The position numbers and the translations under genes were made by a program. Shown here piece after piece: positions 49,389 to 56,076 of a stretch of DNA of 64,000 nucleotides. The DNA is from Thiobacillus sp. SCUT-2 (GTDB lineage Bacteria > Pseudomonadota > Gammaproteobacteria > Burkholderiales > Thiobacillaceae): contig NZ_CP141769.1 of the NCBI RefSeq assembly GCF_035621355.1, forward strand, positions 1,612,001-1,676,000. Reading direction: 5' to 3'. Every line of letters begins with the position of its first letter. The stretch's first letter is position 1. The notes beneath the pieces were generated by a model. It saw only the letters and a list, made by a program, of their open reading frames with translations. It had not been told where the DNA came from and searched no databases.

Positions 49389-49844
49389 TCAGGGCTCGCC
49401 CCAGCGCGCGGCCGCCGCATCGTCGCTGGCCCGCGCCTCCACCCAGCGCTCGCCCTGCGGCGTTTCTTCCTTCTTCCAGAACGGGGCGCGCGTCTTCAGC
49501 GCGTCCATCAGGTACTCGCACGCGGCAAAGGCGTCGCCGCGATGGCTGCTCGCCACGGCCACCAGCACGATGGGATCGCCCGGCAGCAGCCGCCCCACGC
49601 GGTGGATCAGCGTCACGTCGAGCAGCGCCCAGCGCGCGCGCGCCTCGTCGAGCAGCGCGTTCAGCGCCTTCTCGGTCATCCCGGGATAATGCTCGAGCGT
49701 CATCGCGGTGACGCCGGCCCCGTCGTTCATGTCGCGCGCCAGGCCGACGAAGCTGGCGATGGCGCCAATGTCGGTACGACCTTGCCGCATCGCGTCGACC
49801 TCGGCGCCGAGGTCGAAAACCGCCGTCTGGACACGGATCTTCAT
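49389..49844 (-). CDS. moaE: Molybdopterin synthase catalytic subunit MoaE
   Basis: The protein has 151 residues. MoaE combines with thiocarboxylated MoaD to insert two sulfurs into cyclic pyranopterin monophosphate. IASFVGLARDMNDG, LEHYPGMTEKAL, IHRVGRLLPGD and the catalytic lysine region APFWKKEETPQG are present. Last gene of the mobB-moeA-moaD-moaE operon, 4 bp after moaD. Confidence 0.93.
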   Translation of the reverse strand: MKIRVQTAVFDLGAEVDAMRQGRTDIGAIASFVGLARDMNDGAGVTAMTLEHYPGMTEKALNALLDEARARWALLDVTLIHRVGRLLPGDPIVLVAVASSHRGDAFAACEYLMDALKTRAPFWKKEETPQGERWVEARASDDAAAARWGEP

Positions 49845-49848
49845 CGCG

Positions 49849-50100
49849 TCAGCCTCCGGTCACCGGCGGGAAGATCGCGACCTCGGCGTGGTCGGGCACG
49901 GCGGCGTCGAGGGCGACGAGATCCTGATTCACCGCGACGCGGAACGGCCGACCCGTTCCGAGTTCCTCCTCCCAGACACCGCCGCGCGCGCGCAGCGCGG
50001 CGACCAGGTCCGCAACCGTGCGTCCGGACCAGTCGAGCGTCTCCTCCGCGAGACCGAGGCGCTCGCGCAGGCGGGCGAAATACAGGACGCGCAGGCTCAT
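49849..50100 (-). CDS. moaD: Molybdopterin synthase sulfur carrier MoaD
   Basis: The protein has 83 residues with a ubiquitin-like fold. It opens MSLRVLYFARLRERLGL and ends FPPVTGG; the C-terminal Gly-Gly receives sulfur as a thiocarboxylate. Start ATG 50100 overlaps the moeA stop (ATGA). Confidence 0.92.
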   Translation of the reverse strand: MSLRVLYFARLRERLGLAEETLDWSGRTVADLVAALRARGGVWEEELGTGRPFRVAVNQDLVALDAAVPDHAEVAIFPPVTGG

Positions 50101-51290
50101 GCCAGCAGCTCCGCGAAGGGAATGAAGCGTACCCAGTCGCCGGGGCGCACCGTGCCGCCGATCTCGACGTCGACGAGGCCGTCTGCCCAGGCGCACGAAG
50201 TCAGCACGCCCGAGCTCTGGTTCGGAAACAGCGCCAGCCTGCCGTTCGGCTGCAGCCGCGCGCGCAGGAACTCGCGCCGCGTGCCCGGCTTCGGCCATGC
50301 AAAGTCCGCCTGCGCGGCGAATGCACGGTACAGCACGTCCGCCGCGCCCATGCGCTTCAGCAGGAAGGGGCGCACGAACAGGCCGAAGGTGACGAAGGCC
50401 GACACGGGATTGCCGGGCAGGCCGATGAAGTCCGTGTCGCCGACGCGCCCGTAGACCAGCGGCTTGCCCGGCTTCATGGCGACCTTCCACATTTCCACGC
50501 GGCCGAGCTTTTCCACCGCCGCCTTGACGTAGTCGGCCTCGCCGACCGAGACGCCGCCGCTGGTGATGACCACGTCGGCGACGCTGGCCGCGCCCTCGAG
50601 CGCCGCTTCGGTCGCCTCCAGCGTGTCCGGCACGATGCCGAGGTCGATCAGTTCGCAGCCGAGCGCGTTGACGAGGCCGGTCAGCGTATAGCGGTTGGAG
50701 TTGTAGATCTGTCCCGGCTGCAGCGGCGTTCCCGGCGTCACCAGCTCGTCCCCGGTGAAGAAGCACGCGACCTTGAGCCTGCGGAACACCGGCAGCTCGG
50801 CCAGGCCGACCGAGGCCGCAAGGCCCATCTCGGCGGCGCCGAGGCGCGTTCCGGCCGCGAGAACCTGCGTGCCCCGCTCGATGTCTTCGCCGGCGCGGCG
50901 GATGTTCTCGCCGGGATGCGGCTGGGCGTGGATGACCACCCCGTCGTCCGCTTCTGCGCAATATTCCTGCATCAGTACCGCATCGGCCCCCGGGGGAACG
51001 GGGGCACCGGTGAAGATGCGCGCCGCCGTGCCCGCGGCGAGCGGCTCGCCGACGGCGCCGGCGAGAATGCGCTGCGAGACCGGCAGCCGGACGCCGGCCG
51101 CGGGCACGTCGGCGACGCGCACGGCGTAGCCGTCCATCGCGCTGTTGTCCGCCGGCGGCACGGTGATCGCGGACGTCTGCGGCGCGGCGAGGACGCGGCC
51201 CAGCGCCTGCGCGACCGGCACGTTCTCGGTGGCGGTCACGCCGTGTGCACGTTCGAGCAGGGCGTCAAGCAGTTCGGTGGCTGTAAGCAT
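50097..51290 (-). CDS. moeA: Molybdopterin molybdenumtransferase MoeA
   Basis: The protein has 397 residues. MoeA inserts molybdate into adenylylated molybdopterin. Signature PPADNSAMDGYAVR, RIFTGAPVPPGADAV, NSNRYTLTGLV, TSGGVSVGEADYV and the C-terminal LPGNPVSAFVTF. It overlaps mobB upstream by 26 bp and moaD downstream. Confidence 0.94.
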   Translation of the reverse strand: MLTATELLDALLERAHGVTATENVPVAQALGRVLAAPQTSAITVPPADNSAMDGYAVRVADVPAAGVRLPVSQRILAGAVGEPLAAGTAARIFTGAPVPPGADAVLMQEYCAEADDGVVIHAQPHPGENIRRAGEDIERGTQVLAAGTRLGAAEMGLAASVGLAELPVFRRLKVACFFTGDELVTPGTPLQPGQIYNSNRYTLTGLVNALGCELIDLGIVPDTLEATEAALEGAASVADVVITSGGVSVGEADYVKAAVEKLGRVEMWKVAMKPGKPLVYGRVGDTDFIGLPGNPVSAFVTFGLFVRPFLLKRMGAADVLYRAFAAQADFAWPKPGTRREFLRARLQPNGRLALFPNQSSGVLTSCAWADGLVDVEIGGTVRPGDWVRFIPFAELLA

Positions 51291-51765
51291 GTTCGAGGAT
51301 GAAATCGCTGAGTGGGGAAATCGCATCGAGGTCGATGCGCGGAAAACCGTCGGGCGGCGGGACGTCGGACGCCACCGCCAGGATGTGCGGATCGCCGGGA
51401 TACAGCCAGGGCTTGCCGGTCGCGGCGCGGTGCACCTCGAGCCTGGGGATCGGCTCGCGCTTGTAGCCCTCGACCAGCACCAGATCGCACGGCGGCAGCT
51501 GGGCCAGCAGCGCGTCCAGCCGCGGTGGCGTGTCACGATGCTCGGTCAGCACTGCGGTCCGGTGATCCGAGGCCAGCAGCACGGCCGCCGCGCCGGCCTC
51601 GCGCGCGCGCCAGCTGTCCTTGCCGGGGCGATCGATGTCGAAGTCGTGGTGGGTGTGCTTGATCACCGCGACGCTGAGGCCGCACGCGCGAAGTTGCGGC
51701 AGCACGCGCTCGATCAGCGTCGTCTTGCCGCTGCCGCTGTAGCCGGCGATCCCGAACACCCTCAT
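51265..51765 (-). CDS. mobB: Molybdopterin-guanine dinucleotide adapter MobB
   Basis: The protein has 166 residues, a P-loop GTPase-type protein. Walker A is GYSGSGKTTLIERVL (8-22), with IKHTHHDFDIDRPGKDSWR and LVLVEGYKREPIPRLEV. It assists MobA in attaching GMP to the cofactor. First gene of the minus-strand operon, divergent from moaA across a 71-bp region containing a ModE-like box. Confidence 0.93.
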   Translation of the reverse strand: MRVFGIAGYSGSGKTTLIERVLPQLRACGLSVAVIKHTHHDFDIDRPGKDSWRAREAGAAAVLLASDHRTAVLTEHRDTPPRLDALLAQLPPCDLVLVEGYKREPIPRLEVHRAATGKPWLYPGDPHILAVASDVPPPDGFPRIDLDAISPLSDFILEHAYSHRTA

Positions 51766-51793
51766 GTCTGCATTGCCAGTTCGACCGAATGTG

Positions 51794-51815
51794 GTTATAT
51801 TTTTTCATATATAAC
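51794..51815. promoter_or_regulatory. ModE-box-like operator
   Basis: GTTATAT-TTTTTCAT-ATATAAC is a perfect 7-bp inverted repeat with an 8-bp spacer. The E. coli modA operator has the same architecture (GTTATAT-N8-ACATAAC). It sits in the mobB-moaA divergent region. Confidence 0.7.
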
Positions 51816-51836
51816 TCGTTCCTGCCAAGCGCCATC

Positions 51837-52838
51837 ATGAACGCAGCCGTACCGTCCGCCTCGCATGGCCTGGTCGACCAGTTCGGCCGCCGCATCGACT
51901 ACGTGCGGCTGTCGGTGACCGACCGCTGCGACCTGCGCTGCAGCTACTGCATGCCGGAAGGCTTCAAGGGTTTCGAGGAACCCGCGCACTGGCTCGACTT
52001 CGACGAAATCGAGCGGCTGATCGGCGCTTTCGCGCGCCTGGGCGTGCGCCGCGTCCGCCTCACCGGCGGCGAGCCGCTGCTGCGGCGCAACATTGCGGAA
52101 CTGGCCGCGCGCATCGCCGCCCTGCCCGGCATCGAGGATCTCTCGCTCTCGACCAACGCCACCCAGCTCGACCGCCACGCGCATGCGCTGAAGGCCGCCG
52201 GCGTGACACGGCTCAATGTCAGCCTCGATTCGCTGCAGCAGGCACGCGTGGAGCGCATCAATGGCCGCGACGTGCTGGCCAAGGTCATGGCCGGGCTGGC
52301 CGCCGCCGAGGGCGCCGGCTTCGCGCCGATCAAGCTGAACATGGTCGCGCTCGCCGGCACCAACGACGACGAGATCGACGAAATGGTCGCCTTCTGCATG
52401 GCGCGCGGCTTCGTCCTGCGCCTGATCGAGACAATGCCGATGGGCGACACCGGCCGCAACGCCGAATACCTCGACCTGCAGCCGGTGAAGGAACGCCTGC
52501 GCGCGCAGTTCGGGCTGGTCGAAACGACCCTGCCCGGCGCCGGCCCCGCGCGCTACCTCGGCACGCCCGACGGCCGCTTCAACGTCGGCTTCATCACCCC
52601 GATCTCGCAGCATTTCTGCGCCACCTGCAACCGCGTGCGGGTAGCGGTCGACGGCACGGCGTACATGTGCCTCGGACAGGACGAGCGGTTCGAATTCCGC
52701 CCGCTGCTGCGCAGCGGCTGCAGCGACGCCGAACTCGACGCCGCGATCCTCGATGCGATCAACCTCAAGCCCGAGCGTCACGAGTTCCGCGAAGCGCCGG
52801 CCAAGATCCTGCGCTTCATGTCGATGACCGGCGGCTGA
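51837..52838 (+). CDS. moaA: GTP 3',8-cyclase MoaA
   Basis: This is a radical SAM enzyme that makes the first molybdopterin intermediate from GTP. It has 333 residues. The N-terminal iron-sulfur motif is C31-DLR-C35-SY-C38, with VRLTGGEPLLRR for SAM. The C-terminal cluster uses FCATCNRVRV and MCLG. The protein ends MSMTGG, the conserved Gly-Gly needed for the catalytic arginines. ATG 51837 is preferred to an upstream ATG at 51789 because homology starts at residue 12. Confidence 0.95.
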   Translation: MNAAVPSASHGLVDQFGRRIDYVRLSVTDRCDLRCSYCMPEGFKGFEEPAHWLDFDEIERLIGAFARLGVRRVRLTGGEPLLRRNIAELAARIAALPGIEDLSLSTNATQLDRHAHALKAAGVTRLNVSLDSLQQARVERINGRDVLAKVMAGLAAAEGAGFAPIKLNMVALAGTNDDEIDEMVAFCMARGFVLRLIETMPMGDTGRNAEYLDLQPVKERLRAQFGLVETTLPGAGPARYLGTPDGRFNVGFITPISQHFCATCNRVRVAVDGTAYMCLGQDERFEFRPLLRSGCSDAELDAAILDAINLKPERHEFREAPAKILRFMSMTGG

Positions 52839-52842
52839 GCCG

Positions 52843-53997
52843 CTATGCGCCGACGGTGCGGAAACCCGCGAACGGGTCGCGCCGGTCGGGCAGGTAGAAA
52901 TTGCGGAAGCCCGGGCGCCGCAGCGCCGCATCGGTCACCGGCCCACCGCCGCGCAGCTCACCATGGGTGTGGAACCACGGCTGCGAATAGTCGCGGTACG
53001 GGTCGGGACTGAAGCCCGGATAGGGCGCGAACGGCTCGCGCAGCCACTCCCACGCCATGCCCCAGCGGAAATCCGGGTGCCCCGCGGCGCGCAGCCACTC
53101 CCCCGCCGCCGGCAGGCGCCGGCCCTGCCATGCCGCGTAGGCCTCGGCCTCGTGGCGATTCACGTGCAGCATCGGAAGGCTTGCGTCGAGCGCATCCCAG
53201 CGGTCGAAGCGGCGCACCTGCCAGCCGCCGGCGTGCGGCCTCCAGTAGAGCGGATGCCCGGCCGCGGCGGCACATCGCCAGGCCCAGCCCTCCTCGCTCC
53301 ACAGCGCGCGCGCCGCGTAGGCGCCGGCCTCGACGAACGCCCCAAAATCAGTCTCGGTGACCGGCCGCGCGTCGATGTCGAACGCGGCGACCGGCACCAT
53401 ATGGCGCCATTTCTCGTTGTCGAAGATAAAGCCGGCGTCGGCGCCGCTGCCGAGCGCGACCGCGCCATCCGCGAATGCCAGCCGCTGCGCGGCCCCCGCG
53501 ACGCGCGGGCACGGCGCCGCCGGCACCGGGTAGCCCAGATTCTGGAACGCCATCCACCACGCCTCGATGTGCATCAGCTCGTGATACAGGCTCAGCTCGG
53601 CGAAATACGCGGCAGCGTTGTCGAACGCCCCATGCAGCCGCGCGGCCACGGCGTCGGCGACCTGCCCGGCGTAGGCGTCGACCTCGGCGGGTGCCAGCAG
53701 CGGCAGGTCCCAGCGGGTGTCGTGCGGCACGGCGGAGGAATCGTAGAGGCGGTCGGATTCGGCGACGAAGCTCGGCGTGCGGCTGCCGTCGGTGCGCTCG
53801 CGCAGGCACCAGCGCTCCTGGAACCAGACGATGTGGCCGTATTCCCACAGCGGCGGGTTCAGATGCGCCGCGCGCGGCCCGAGCCAGCCGCCCTCGGGCA
53901 GGCAGTCGATCAGCGCGCGCAGGCGGCCGCGCGCCTCGCCGAGGCGCGCGAGCAACTGGTCCGCGGTGCAGGCGCTGATGGGACGATCGGGATTCAT
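52843..53997 (-). CDS. EgtB/SenA-type formylglycine-fold iron enzyme
   Basis: The protein has 384 residues. The N-terminal DinB-like half carries the iron site, with LYHELMHIEAWW supplying H-x3-H-x-E and a further histidine near the N-terminus. The C-terminal FGE-sulfatase half has WEYGHIVWFQERWC, MLHVNRHEAEAYAAW, MAWEWLREPFAPYPGF and RNFYLPDRRDPFAGFR. EgtB joins hercynine to gamma-glutamylcysteine or cysteine; SenA joins it to a selenosugar. Divergent from selD-egtD by 63 bp. It converges on moaA with only 4 bp between the stops. Confidence 0.82.
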   Translation of the reverse strand: MNPDRPISACTADQLLARLGEARGRLRALIDCLPEGGWLGPRAAHLNPPLWEYGHIVWFQERWCLRERTDGSRTPSFVAESDRLYDSSAVPHDTRWDLPLLAPAEVDAYAGQVADAVAARLHGAFDNAAAYFAELSLYHELMHIEAWWMAFQNLGYPVPAAPCPRVAGAAQRLAFADGAVALGSGADAGFIFDNEKWRHMVPVAAFDIDARPVTETDFGAFVEAGAYAARALWSEEGWAWRCAAAAGHPLYWRPHAGGWQVRRFDRWDALDASLPMLHVNRHEAEAYAAWQGRRLPAAGEWLRAAGHPDFRWGMAWEWLREPFAPYPGFSPDPYRDYSQPWFHTHGELRGGGPVTDAALRRPGFRNFYLPDRRDPFAGFRTVGA

Positions 53998-54060
53998 GTT
54001 GTATAAAGCACTGTAGCCCACGCACGTCCGGGCGCCCAATTCAACGAGACCCGCCAGACC

Positions 54061-55134
54061 ATGAACGACCTCCATCCCCCCGCCGAACCCATCCGCCTGA
54101 CCGCGTTCTCCCACGGCGGCGGCTGCGGCTGCAAGATCGCGCCCGCGGTGCTGCAGGACATCCTCGCCGACACGCCCTTCTACTCGCATCTGGGAGCGGC
54201 CTATCCCGATCTGCTCGTCGGTATCGAGCACGGCGACGACGCCGCCGTCTACAAGCTCAACGACGGGCAGGCGATCGTGGCGACGACCGATTTCTTCATG
54301 CCCATCGTCGACGACCCCTTCGACTTCGGCCGCATCGCCGCGACCAACGCCCTCTCCGACGTCTACGCGATGGGCGGCAAGCCGCTGTTCGCGCTCGCCA
54401 TCGTCGGCATGCCGATCGGCAAGCTGCCGAACGACGTGATCCGCCAGATCCTCGCCGGCGGCGAATCGGTGTGCCGCGCCGCCGGCATCCCGATTGCCGG
54501 CGGCCACTCGATCGACGCCCCGGAGCCGATCTACGGGCTCGTCGGCATCGGCGTCGTCGATCCGCGCAAGGTCAAGCAGAACGCCGGCGGCCAGGCCGGC
54601 GACTGCCTCATCCTCGGCAAGCCGCTCGGCGTCGGCATCTACAGCGCCGCGCTGAAGAAAGGCCTGCTGAGCGCCGAGCAGTACGCGGCGATGATCGCCG
54701 CCACCACGCAGCTCAACACCGCCGGTGCGGATCTGGCCGACACGGCCGGCGTCCACGCGATGACCGACATCACCGGCTTCGGCCTGCTCGGGCATCTGCT
54801 GGAGATCACGCGCGCCTCCAAGGTGTCGGCTCGCGTCGAAATGAGCCTGATGCCCGTGTTGCCGGGCGCGGCCGCGCTCGCCCAGGCCGGCCACGTCACC
54901 GGCGCGAGCCAGCGCAACTGGGCGAGCTACGGCGGCGAAGTACAGTTCGCCGACGGCGTCGCCGACTGGCAGCGAGCCCTGCTGACCGACCCGCAGACCA
55001 GCGGTGGCCTGCTGGTGAGCTGCGCACCGGACGCGAAGTCCGCCGTGCTCGACGTGTTCCGCCGCCACGGTTTCGCCGACGCGGCCGAAATCGGCCGCCT
55101 GCAGCCGGGCCGCCACGTGGCGGTCGCCGCCTGA
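54061..55134 (+). CDS. selD: Selenide, water dikinase (SelD/SenC)
   Basis: The protein has 357 residues. It makes selenophosphate from selenide and ATP. The catalytic loop is GGGCGCK (residues 19-25): Cys22 and Lys25 align with E. coli Cys17 and Lys20. ATP-binding segments DDAAVYKL, TTDFFMPIVDDPFDFGRIAA and GGHSIDAPEPIYGL are intact. Its stop abuts the egtD start with no gap (TGA-GTG), so selenophosphate and hercynine synthesis are coupled. This context makes SenC-like function in selenoneine synthesis likely, while a role in tRNA selenation remains possible. Confidence 0.93.
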   Translation: MNDLHPPAEPIRLTAFSHGGGCGCKIAPAVLQDILADTPFYSHLGAAYPDLLVGIEHGDDAAVYKLNDGQAIVATTDFFMPIVDDPFDFGRIAATNALSDVYAMGGKPLFALAIVGMPIGKLPNDVIRQILAGGESVCRAAGIPIAGGHSIDAPEPIYGLVGIGVVDPRKVKQNAGGQAGDCLILGKPLGVGIYSAALKKGLLSAEQYAAMIAATTQLNTAGADLADTAGVHAMTDITGFGLLGHLLEITRASKVSARVEMSLMPVLPGAAALAQAGHVTGASQRNWASYGGEVQFADGVADWQRALLTDPQTSGGLLVSCAPDAKSAVLDVFRRHGFADAAEIGRLQPGRHVAVAA

Positions 55135-56076
55135 GTGGCGTTCACCTTCCAGGACTTTCCCAACGCGCGCGACGACCTGCGCGCGGACGTCCTCGCAGGG
55201 CTCGCCGCCCACCCCAGGACCATTCCGCCGAAATACTTCTACGACGACGCGGGCTGCCGCCTCTTCGAGGCGATCTGCACGCAGCCGGAATACGCCCTCT
55301 GCCGCACCGAGCAGGCGCTGATGCACGCCCGCCTGGCGGACATCGCCGCGGCGATCGGCGAGATCGAATGCATCGTCGAGCCCGGCGCCGGCGACTGCAG
55401 CAAGGTGCGCCTGCTGCTCGACGCACTGCGGCCGACCCGCGTCGTGCTCATCGACATCGCCGGCGCCCCGCTTGCCGCGGCGGCGCAGGCGCTGGCGAGC
55501 GACTATCCGGCGGTGGACGTGAACGCGCTGGCGATGGACTTTCTGCGTGACCTCGAATCCGCCGGGCCCTGGCTGTCGGCAGGCGAGCGGCTGGTCTACT
55601 ACCCCGGCTCGAGCATCGGCAATTTTCCGCCTGCGGCGGCCAGCGACCTGCTCACGCGCTTCCGCCACCTCGCCGGTCCCGCGGGCCGCCTGCTGATCGG
55701 CTTCGACCTCAAGAAGGATCCGGCCCTGCTGCACGCCGCCTACAACGATGCCGCCGGCGTCACCGCCGCGTTCAACCTCAATCTGCTCACGCGGCTCAAC
55801 CGCGAACTCGACGCCGACTTCGACCCCGCAAGCTTCCGCCATTACGCGTTCTACAACCCCGTCGCGGGCCGCGTCGAGATGCACCTCGTCAGCCTCCGCC
55901 CGCAGGACGTGAACGTCGCGGGGACGCGGTTCCACTTCGCGGAGGGCGAGACGCTCCACACCGAGCACTCGTACAAGTACCGCAGCGACGAGTTCGCGGC
56001 GCTCGCCCGCGCCGCCGGCTGGCAGCCGGCCGGCGAATGGCTCCAGGACGGCTTCGCCGTCCAGCTCTACCGCTAG
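55135..56076 (+). CDS. egtD: L-histidine N-alpha-methyltransferase EgtD
   Basis: The protein has 313 residues. EgtD makes hercynine (trimethyl-histidine) from histidine and SAM. Start GTG 55135 directly follows the selD stop. Motifs: PPKYFYDDAGCRLFEAICTQPEYALCRTEQ, the SAM region VEPGAGDCSKVRLLLDA, LVYYPGSSIGNFPP, and FAEGETLHTEHSYKY. Length and motif order match the family. Its stop overlaps the convergent HD-GYP gene by four bases. Confidence 0.92.
   Translation: MAFTFQDFPNARDDLRADVLAGLAAHPRTIPPKYFYDDAGCRLFEAICTQPEYALCRTEQALMHARLADIAAAIGEIECIVEPGAGDCSKVRLLLDALRPTRVVLIDIAGAPLAAAAQALASDYPAVDVNALAMDFLRDLESAGPWLSAGERLVYYPGSSIGNFPPAAASDLLTRFRHLAGPAGRLLIGFDLKKDPALLHAAYNDAAGVTAAFNLNLLTRLNRELDADFDPASFRHYAFYNPVAGRVEMHLVSLRPQDVNVAGTRFHFAEGETLHTEHSYKYRSDEFAALARAAGWQPAGEWLQDGFAVQLYR

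What the first reader, a model, noticed from the sequence alone, without database searches (positions are those of the whole stretch)
52843..56076. selD-egtD fused in translation next to an EgtB/SenA-like enzyme: likely selenoneine locus without an adjacent SenB
Seen: selD stop directly abuts the egtD start (TGA-GTG) and an EgtB-type gene is divergent by 63 bp. EgtD makes hercynine; SelD makes selenophosphate. Known: selenoneine synthesis uses SenA (EgtB-like), SenB (selenosugar synthase) and SenC (SelD-like). No SenB-like glycosyltransferase is in the cluster, and the GT4 protein at 7.7 kb looks unrelated. Either SenB is elsewhere, or selenium enters by another route.
Basis: partly seen in the sequence, partly recalled or inferred. 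Interest (0 to 1): 0.8.

Follow-up and report, generated by a model that had tools for sequence, protein, structure and literature searches.

The report
Selenoneine locus with distant senB
A Thiobacillus-like bacterium probably makes the selenium antioxidant selenoneine with known enzymes, but one of the genes, senB, lies almost a million bases from the others, so this is a known pathway with a scattered gene layout.

Summary
In detail: senA-like 52843-53997(-), 63 bp, selD 54061-55134(+), whose TGA abuts the GTG of egtD 55135-56076(+). It is coupling, not fusion. The "missing" SenB is in the same genome, 965 kb away (C1:699142-700101, minus; TIGR04348 443 bits, cut-off 300), with the published SenB residues kept. 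So the genome encodes EgtD, SelD, SenB and SenA. The EgtB-like protein fits SenA: nearest solved structure by sequence and by predicted fold is Variovorax SenA, and it passes a signature that the four EgtB/OvsA proteins scanned fail. Trees could not separate SenA from EgtB ancestry. A relative, G001, keeps senB, selD, senA and egtD within 6 kb, and the window SelD is kin to SelDs of senB-selD pairs rather than to mnmH-linked SelDs. It is the only SelD found, so it must also serve SelA and MnmH. No metabolite was measured. Known pathway, scattered layout. The odder lead: 25 of 117 family genomes have SenB but no SenA-type match.

The parts
52843..53997 (-). senA-like gene, 384 aa, inferred selenoneine synthase SenA
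   Evidence: NF041186 SenA 441 bits (cut-off 420), TIGR04373 86 (71), EgtB model 244 (360, not reached); best PDB matches Variovorax SenA by sequence and predicted fold
53998..54060 (.). 63-bp gap between the divergent senA and selD starts
   Evidence: sequence; divergent arrangement in 39 of 39 adjacent pairs
54061..55134 (+). selD, selenide water dikinase (acts as SenC), 357 aa
   Evidence: NF002098 529 bits (cut-off 299), TIGR00476 435 (125); only SelD match in the genome
55135..56076 (+). egtD, histidine N-alpha-methyltransferase, 313 aa, GTG start abutting the selD TGA
   Evidence: TIGR03438 371 bits (cut-off 291); only EgtD match in the genome; junction

Best explanation
The locus holds three of the four genes of a selenoneine pathway; the fourth, senB, stands alone at C1:699142-700101 of the same chromosome, outside the window. 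Inferred steps: EgtD trimethylates histidine to hercynine; SelD makes selenophosphate; SenB joins its selenium to a UDP-sugar; SenA, a non-haem iron enzyme, couples the selenosugar to hercynine, and the selenoxide breaks down to selenoneine. Shown here: the genes, families, catalytic residues and layout. Inferred: every reaction in this organism. The single SelD must also feed selenocysteine (SelA) and tRNA selenation (MnmH). Its kinship suggests that it once stood in a senB-selD pair and now travels with senA and egtD; the direction of that move is inferred.
For: SenB in the genome, 443 bits, cut-off 300; residues N17, T20, R150, K153, E226 kept. SenA: profile and signature with controls, phmmer 245 bits to SenA against 168 OvsA, 156 EgtB-I, 107 EgtB-II, VIA Z 49.0/47.9/46.6 for SenA entries against 42.8 for the best OvsA and EgtB. 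Iron His 55/139/143 and pocket Y337/N366/F367. 0 of 22 OvsA-specific and 0 of 57 EgtB-II-specific columns in the window protein. G001: senB, selD, senA, egtD within 6 kb. SelD tree. 49 of 51 genomes with this SenA type hold SenB. No EgtC over cut-off in 117 genomes. In G052, G062 and G106 a separate EgtB-like gene pairs with egtD while selD stays with senA.
Against: AU tests reject no tested ancestry: with SenA p 0.247, EgtB-II 0.366, EgtB-I 0.258, OvsA 0.053; the window clade has a long stem (0.94) and an open backbone. The SenA model is not specific: it gives OvsA 424 bits. The signature is also passed by L147, whose genome shows no SenB. Only 5 of 7 SenA-specific columns are kept. Co-occurrence is weak evidence: SenB is in 52 of 56 genomes of the genus with or without SenA. 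SelD is also explained by SelA and MnmH. No product measured.
Confidence: 0.85

Rival explanations
1. Ergothioneine locus: the EgtB-like enzyme is an EgtB that uses a sulfur donor on hercynine, and selD is a neighbour for other reasons.
For: Same fold and iron site; the pocket Y/N/F also occurs in EgtB-II; tree tests do not exclude kinship with EgtB; SelD is needed anyway for SelA and MnmH.
Against: EgtB model 244 bits, cut-off 360, while a true EgtB-II of the genus scores 580; 0 of 57 EgtB-II-specific columns; no EgtC over cut-off; H/R/Y/R at positions recalled as thiol-donor contacts, against R/R/D/R in the one EgtB-I and H/R/F/[A,E,D] in four EgtB-II; divergent selD in 39 of 51 genomes; G001 cluster with senB.
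Confidence: 0.1
2. The SenA is real but gets selenium from something other than the distant SenB.
For: senB is 965 kb away; two genomes with this SenA type show no SenB (G084, G099; draft genomes), and four Methylomirabilota with SenA-type genes show none.
Against: 49 of 51 genomes hold an apparently intact SenB type; key residues kept in 21 of 21 SenBs compared; G001 keeps the genes together.
Confidence: 0.03
3. Ovoselenol pathway: the enzyme is an OvsA acting on histidine.
For: OvsA is the next best PDB match by sequence and OvsAs occur in the family (G107 514 bits to 8u41; G019 and G023 join it in the tree).
Against: 0 of 22 OvsA-specific columns in 13 of 13 window-clade proteins; pocket Y/N/F, not M/Q/A; egtD alongside; AU p 0.053.
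Confidence: 0.01

Closest known systems
sen cluster of Variovorax paradoxus (SenA, SenB, SenC; selenoneine)
   Same: Same four activities are encoded (SenA, SenB, SelD/SenC, EgtD); SenA and SenB key residues kept
   Different: senB is not in the cluster; egtD is coupled to selD; SenA belongs to its own long-stemmed clade; one SelD serves three selenium uses
OvsA/ovoselenol pathway
   Same: Selenoxide synthase fold and the same H/R/Y/R residues
   Different: OvsA pocket is M/Q/A; window is Y/N/F
EgtB-EgtD ergothioneine pathway
   Same: EgtD and an EgtB-fold enzyme on hercynine
   Different: EgtB model not reached, no EgtC over cut-off, selD and a SenB in the genome

Membership tests
SenA, selenoneine synthase | Score over curated SenA model NF041186 | tested here: met
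   441 bits, cut-off 420; but OvsA also reaches 424, so weak alone
SenA, selenoneine synthase | TIGR04373 signature | tested here: met
   86 bits, cut-off 71; 6 of 6 SenA-type controls pass, 4 of 4 EgtB/OvsA controls fail
SenA, selenoneine synthase | Three-His iron site and hercynine-type pocket | tested here: met
   H55/H139/H143; Y337/N366/F367
SenA, selenoneine synthase | Same clade as tested SenA, apart from EgtB | tested here: inconclusive
   95 in the quick tree, open in the careful tree, AU tests undecided
SenA, selenoneine synthase | Couples a selenosugar to hercynine | not testable with these tools
   needs enzyme assay
SenB, selenosugar synthase | TIGR04348 over cut-off and N20/T23/K158/E231 equivalents | tested here: met
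   443 bits; N17/T20/K153/E226; motif EGGANV instead of EGGAHV
sen gene cluster | senA, senB and senC (selD) clustered | tested here: not met
   senB 964,757 bp from senA
EgtB, ergothioneine sulfoxide synthase | Score over TIGR03440 | tested here: not met
   244 bits, cut-off 360
OvsA, ovoselenol selenoxide synthase | Histidine-type pocket M/Q/A and OvsA-specific columns | tested here: not met
   Y/N/F; 0 of 22 columns

The most novel reading that the evidence does not exclude
SenB and its selenosugar are a selenium hub in these bacteria rather than an adjunct of SenA. Of 117 family genomes, 25 have SenB but no SenA-type match at E 1e-60 and no EgtD; they include senB-selD pairs, overlapping in the one-contig genome G046, and SenB keeps its key residues in 5 of 5 such genomes compared. 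At E 1e-5, 8 of the 25 show a full-length OvoA-type protein (4 of 4 scanned pass the OvoA model) and 16 only partial matches or none. The detached senB of the window's genome would then feed selenoneine and at least one further, undescribed selenosugar-derived product.
Probability: 0.33. Interest if true: 0.75.

Novelty: new member of a known kind. Interest (0 to 1): 0.38.

Why it matters
It shows that looking only for the three-gene cluster can misread a genus of sulfur oxidisers, since senB was found near this SenA type in 1 of 51 genomes (many are drafts with short contigs). It gives a direct genetic test, and it points to genomes with SenB but no known SenB-using enzyme, where further selenium metabolites may be sought.

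Tried and rejected
Phylogeny as the decider between SenA and EgtB: 87 rows (82 of 104 loci; 22 near-copies and fragments dropped first) and 50 rows, four AU tests on groups named after seeing the first tree; undecided. NF041186 as sole proof: rejected after it also passed OvsA. A SelD-EgtD read-through fusion: rejected, TAG stops and frame changes in relatives. The GT4 frame near 7.7 kb as SenB: rejected (25 bits). SenA-specific columns: only 7, and other SenA-type proteins without a known product score as high, so they were not used as proof. My script's gene caller did not list senA in the window, whose frame is open beyond it. EgtB-I residue numbers were recalled and first read one position off, then shifted by one so that the three His match. 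Papers: 'selenoneine' with 'Thiobacillus' gave one paper, seen in the listing only, on polysulfides; 'TIGR04348' gave one; 'selenoneine synthase' with 'hercynine' none. The founding papers (Kayrouz 2022 and 2024) are not held, so I cannot say whether they already list Thiobacillus. Families absent from the VIA list are not thereby excluded.

Full report
What is there. The reported features stand at the stated coordinates. On the minus strand, 52843-53997 encodes a 384-aa EgtB-like protein; 63 bp away on the plus strand lie selD (54061-55134) and, directly after its TGA, egtD (55135-56076, GTG start). SelD and EgtD pass their curated models (529 bits against 299; 371 against 291). Over 21 loci the selD stop is TGA in 18 and TAG in 3, and in 2 egtD is in another frame with overlapping TAGTG: coupling, not fusion.

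SenB is in the genome. The window is C1:1612001-1676000 of a 3,010,981-base single-contig genome, 99.9% complete. A search with TIGR04348 finds one match over the cut-off, C1:699166-700095 minus, 443 bits against 300; the ORF is 319 aa, C1:699142-700101. It is 964,757 bases from senA between model matches. The only four distinct PDB sequences it matches are SenB-type glycosyltransferases. Residues equal to N20, T23, K158 and E231 of Variovorax SenB (PMC10891094: passages, section 10) are N17, T20, K153 and E226; the motif reads EGGANV, not EGGAHV. The GT4 frame near 7.7 kb reaches 25 bits.

The EgtB-like protein is best read as SenA. It passes the SenA model (441, cut-off 420) and the TIGR04373 signature (86, cut-off 71) and misses the EgtB model (244, cut-off 360). 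Controls show that the SenA model is not specific (OvsA 424). The signature does better: 6 of 6 SenA-type proteins scanned pass (Variovorax SenA 94, G001 78, L138 89, L147 93, L016 80, L151 95), 4 of 4 others fail (OvsA 45 and 58, EgtB-I 45, EgtB-II 31). L147 is a caution: it passes, yet its genome shows no SenB. By phmmer the best chains are Variovorax SenA, 245 bits, then OvsA 168, EgtB-I 156, EgtB-II 107. The predicted structure (mean pLDDT 92) is nearest to SenA by Foldseek and VIA (Z 49.0, 47.9, 46.6; best OvsA and EgtB 42.8). The three His of the iron site are kept. PDB 8ux5 is titled an OvsA variant M401Y/Q430N/A431F, hercynine-binding with selenoneine-making activity; the aligned residues of the window enzyme are Y337/N366/F367. 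This excludes an OvsA-type pocket, not EgtB, since EgtB-II also has Y/N/F. At four positions that I recall as thiol-donor contacts of EgtB-I, the window has H/R/Y/R, like OvsA (H/R/Y/R) and SenA (H/R/F/R), against R/R/D/R in the one EgtB-I and H/R/F/[A,E,D] in four EgtB-II.

What speaks against. Trees do not settle the ancestry. In a quick tree of 87 rows the window clade (24 rows, 100) falls in a 45-row clade with Variovorax SenA (95). In a careful tree of 50 of those rows the window clade is solid (100/100) but has a stem of 0.94 and the backbone is open. AU tests reject no union: with SenA p 0.247, EgtB-II 0.366, EgtB-I 0.258, OvsA 0.053. The SenA assignment rests on profile, fold, residues and context.

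Context in the family. Of 117 genomes, matches at the thresholds used were: SenA model 63, SenB 86, EgtD 59, SelD 101, SelA 37, MnmH 102; EgtC 0 over cut-off, 12 weak. By score and length I sorted 51 genomes as having the window's SenA type (a 263-bit fragment in G085 was kept; a 300-bit fragment in G098 beside a SelD fusion was left out). Of the 51, 49 hold SenB, 50 EgtD, 45 SelD; selD is within 700 bp of senA in 39, egtD within 1.6 kb in 45, senB within 10 kb in one, G001 (many are drafts). In 32 of the 39 no other SelD or SelD fusion was found. In G001 (L064) senB and selD overlap, then come a nitronate-monooxygenase-type gene, senA on the other strand and egtD, all within 6 kb. G096 has selD-egtD without senA beside it and another SenA-type gene elsewhere. 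In G052, G062 and G106 an EgtB-like gene pairs with egtD while selD stays with senA; the G052 protein is EgtB-II (528 bits to 8qf6), the G106 one joins it in the tree, G062 was sorted by score only. Caution: SenB is in 52 of 56 genomes of the genus, with or without SenA.

Named relatives. A scan of named genomes kept the best 80 loci; the nearest are mostly Thiobacillus or Hydrogenophilales. Of the 29 of the window type (L094-L122; several are the same genomes as above) one, L115, has senB in the stretch held; of the other 51, 40 do. For the 39 loci whose stretch shows no senB, 32 of the genomes hold SenB; the seven without are L106, L114, L133, L147, L152, L160 and L166, the last four Methylomirabilota. 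L115 and 3 of 3 controls hold it.

History of selD. In a careful tree of 51 SelDs the window SelD groups with 17 others from loci of the window type (95/88; one of them, L080, has egtD but no senA beside it). These join three senB-linked SelDs (G001, G046, G107) and two unlinked ones (100/99), apart from 16 mnmH-linked SelDs and one unlinked (98/88). G064 holds one of each kind. The SenB tree leaves open whether the lone Thiobacillus SenBs are nearest to those of senB-selD pairs. So SelD's kinship is shown; that it left a senB-selD pair is inferred. It is the only SelD found in the window's genome, so SelA and MnmH, both present, depend on it too.

Mechanism. Shown: genes, residues, layout. 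Inferred from the published pathway (PMC10702425, part 1 of 3; PMC9814287, whole text): EgtD makes hercynine, SelD selenophosphate, SenB a selenosugar, SenA the selenoxide that yields selenoneine. Coupling selD to egtD would tie the supply of selenophosphate to that of hercynine; that is my inference.

Verdict. A known pathway, complete in this genome, with senB detached; new in layout only. The more open question lies in relatives: 25 of 117 genomes hold SenB with no SenA-type match at 1e-60 and no EgtD. At 1e-5, 8 of the 25 show a full-length OvoA-type protein (4 of 4 scanned pass the OvoA model), G004 a broken partial match, and 16 only partial matches or none.

Noticed in passing
L073:8574-10588 (G046, one contig); also G047, G048, G049, G051: senB directly followed by selD (4-bp overlap by my gene caller in L073, behind an lnt-type gene) in genomes with no SenA, OvsA or EgtD at the thresholds used; product unknown.
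   Followed up: partly
L147, L152, L160, L166: Four Methylomirabilota loci pair egtD with a SenA-type gene, but no SenB was found in their genomes; L147 scores 526 bits to the SenA model.
   Followed up: partly
NCBIfam NF041186 (SenA): The curated SenA equivalog passes a solved OvsA (424 bits, cut-off 420), so annotation by it may mislabel OvsA as SenA.
   Followed up: yes
L075:6074-7411 (G107), L081, L082: OvsA-type enzymes in the family (514 bits to 8u41 for G107; the other two join it in the tree); all three genomes hold SenB, next to selD in G107.
   Followed up: partly
window 53998-54060: A TATATA-like block lies right at the senA start in many of the 17 gaps printed (window and 16 relatives); perhaps part of a two-way promoter. 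Not tested.
   Followed up: no
L063:7335-10932 (own genome): The lone senB stands between a YcaO gene and a SpoU-type methylase gene; YcaO was found beside senB in 13 and the methylase in 17 of 20 short senB loci from other genomes.
   Followed up: partly
G013:C30, G020:C10, G033:C96, G105:C27 and others: 14 SelD-type matches of 243-299 bits class, 13 of them in frames of 758-791 aa, several beside senA, senB or egtD: SelD joined to another domain; domain not tested.
   Followed up: no
window 49389-52838: Genes that look like moaE, moaD, moeA, mobB and moaA (named by eye from the translations) lie directly beside senA; a similar order is seen in L069.
   Followed up: no
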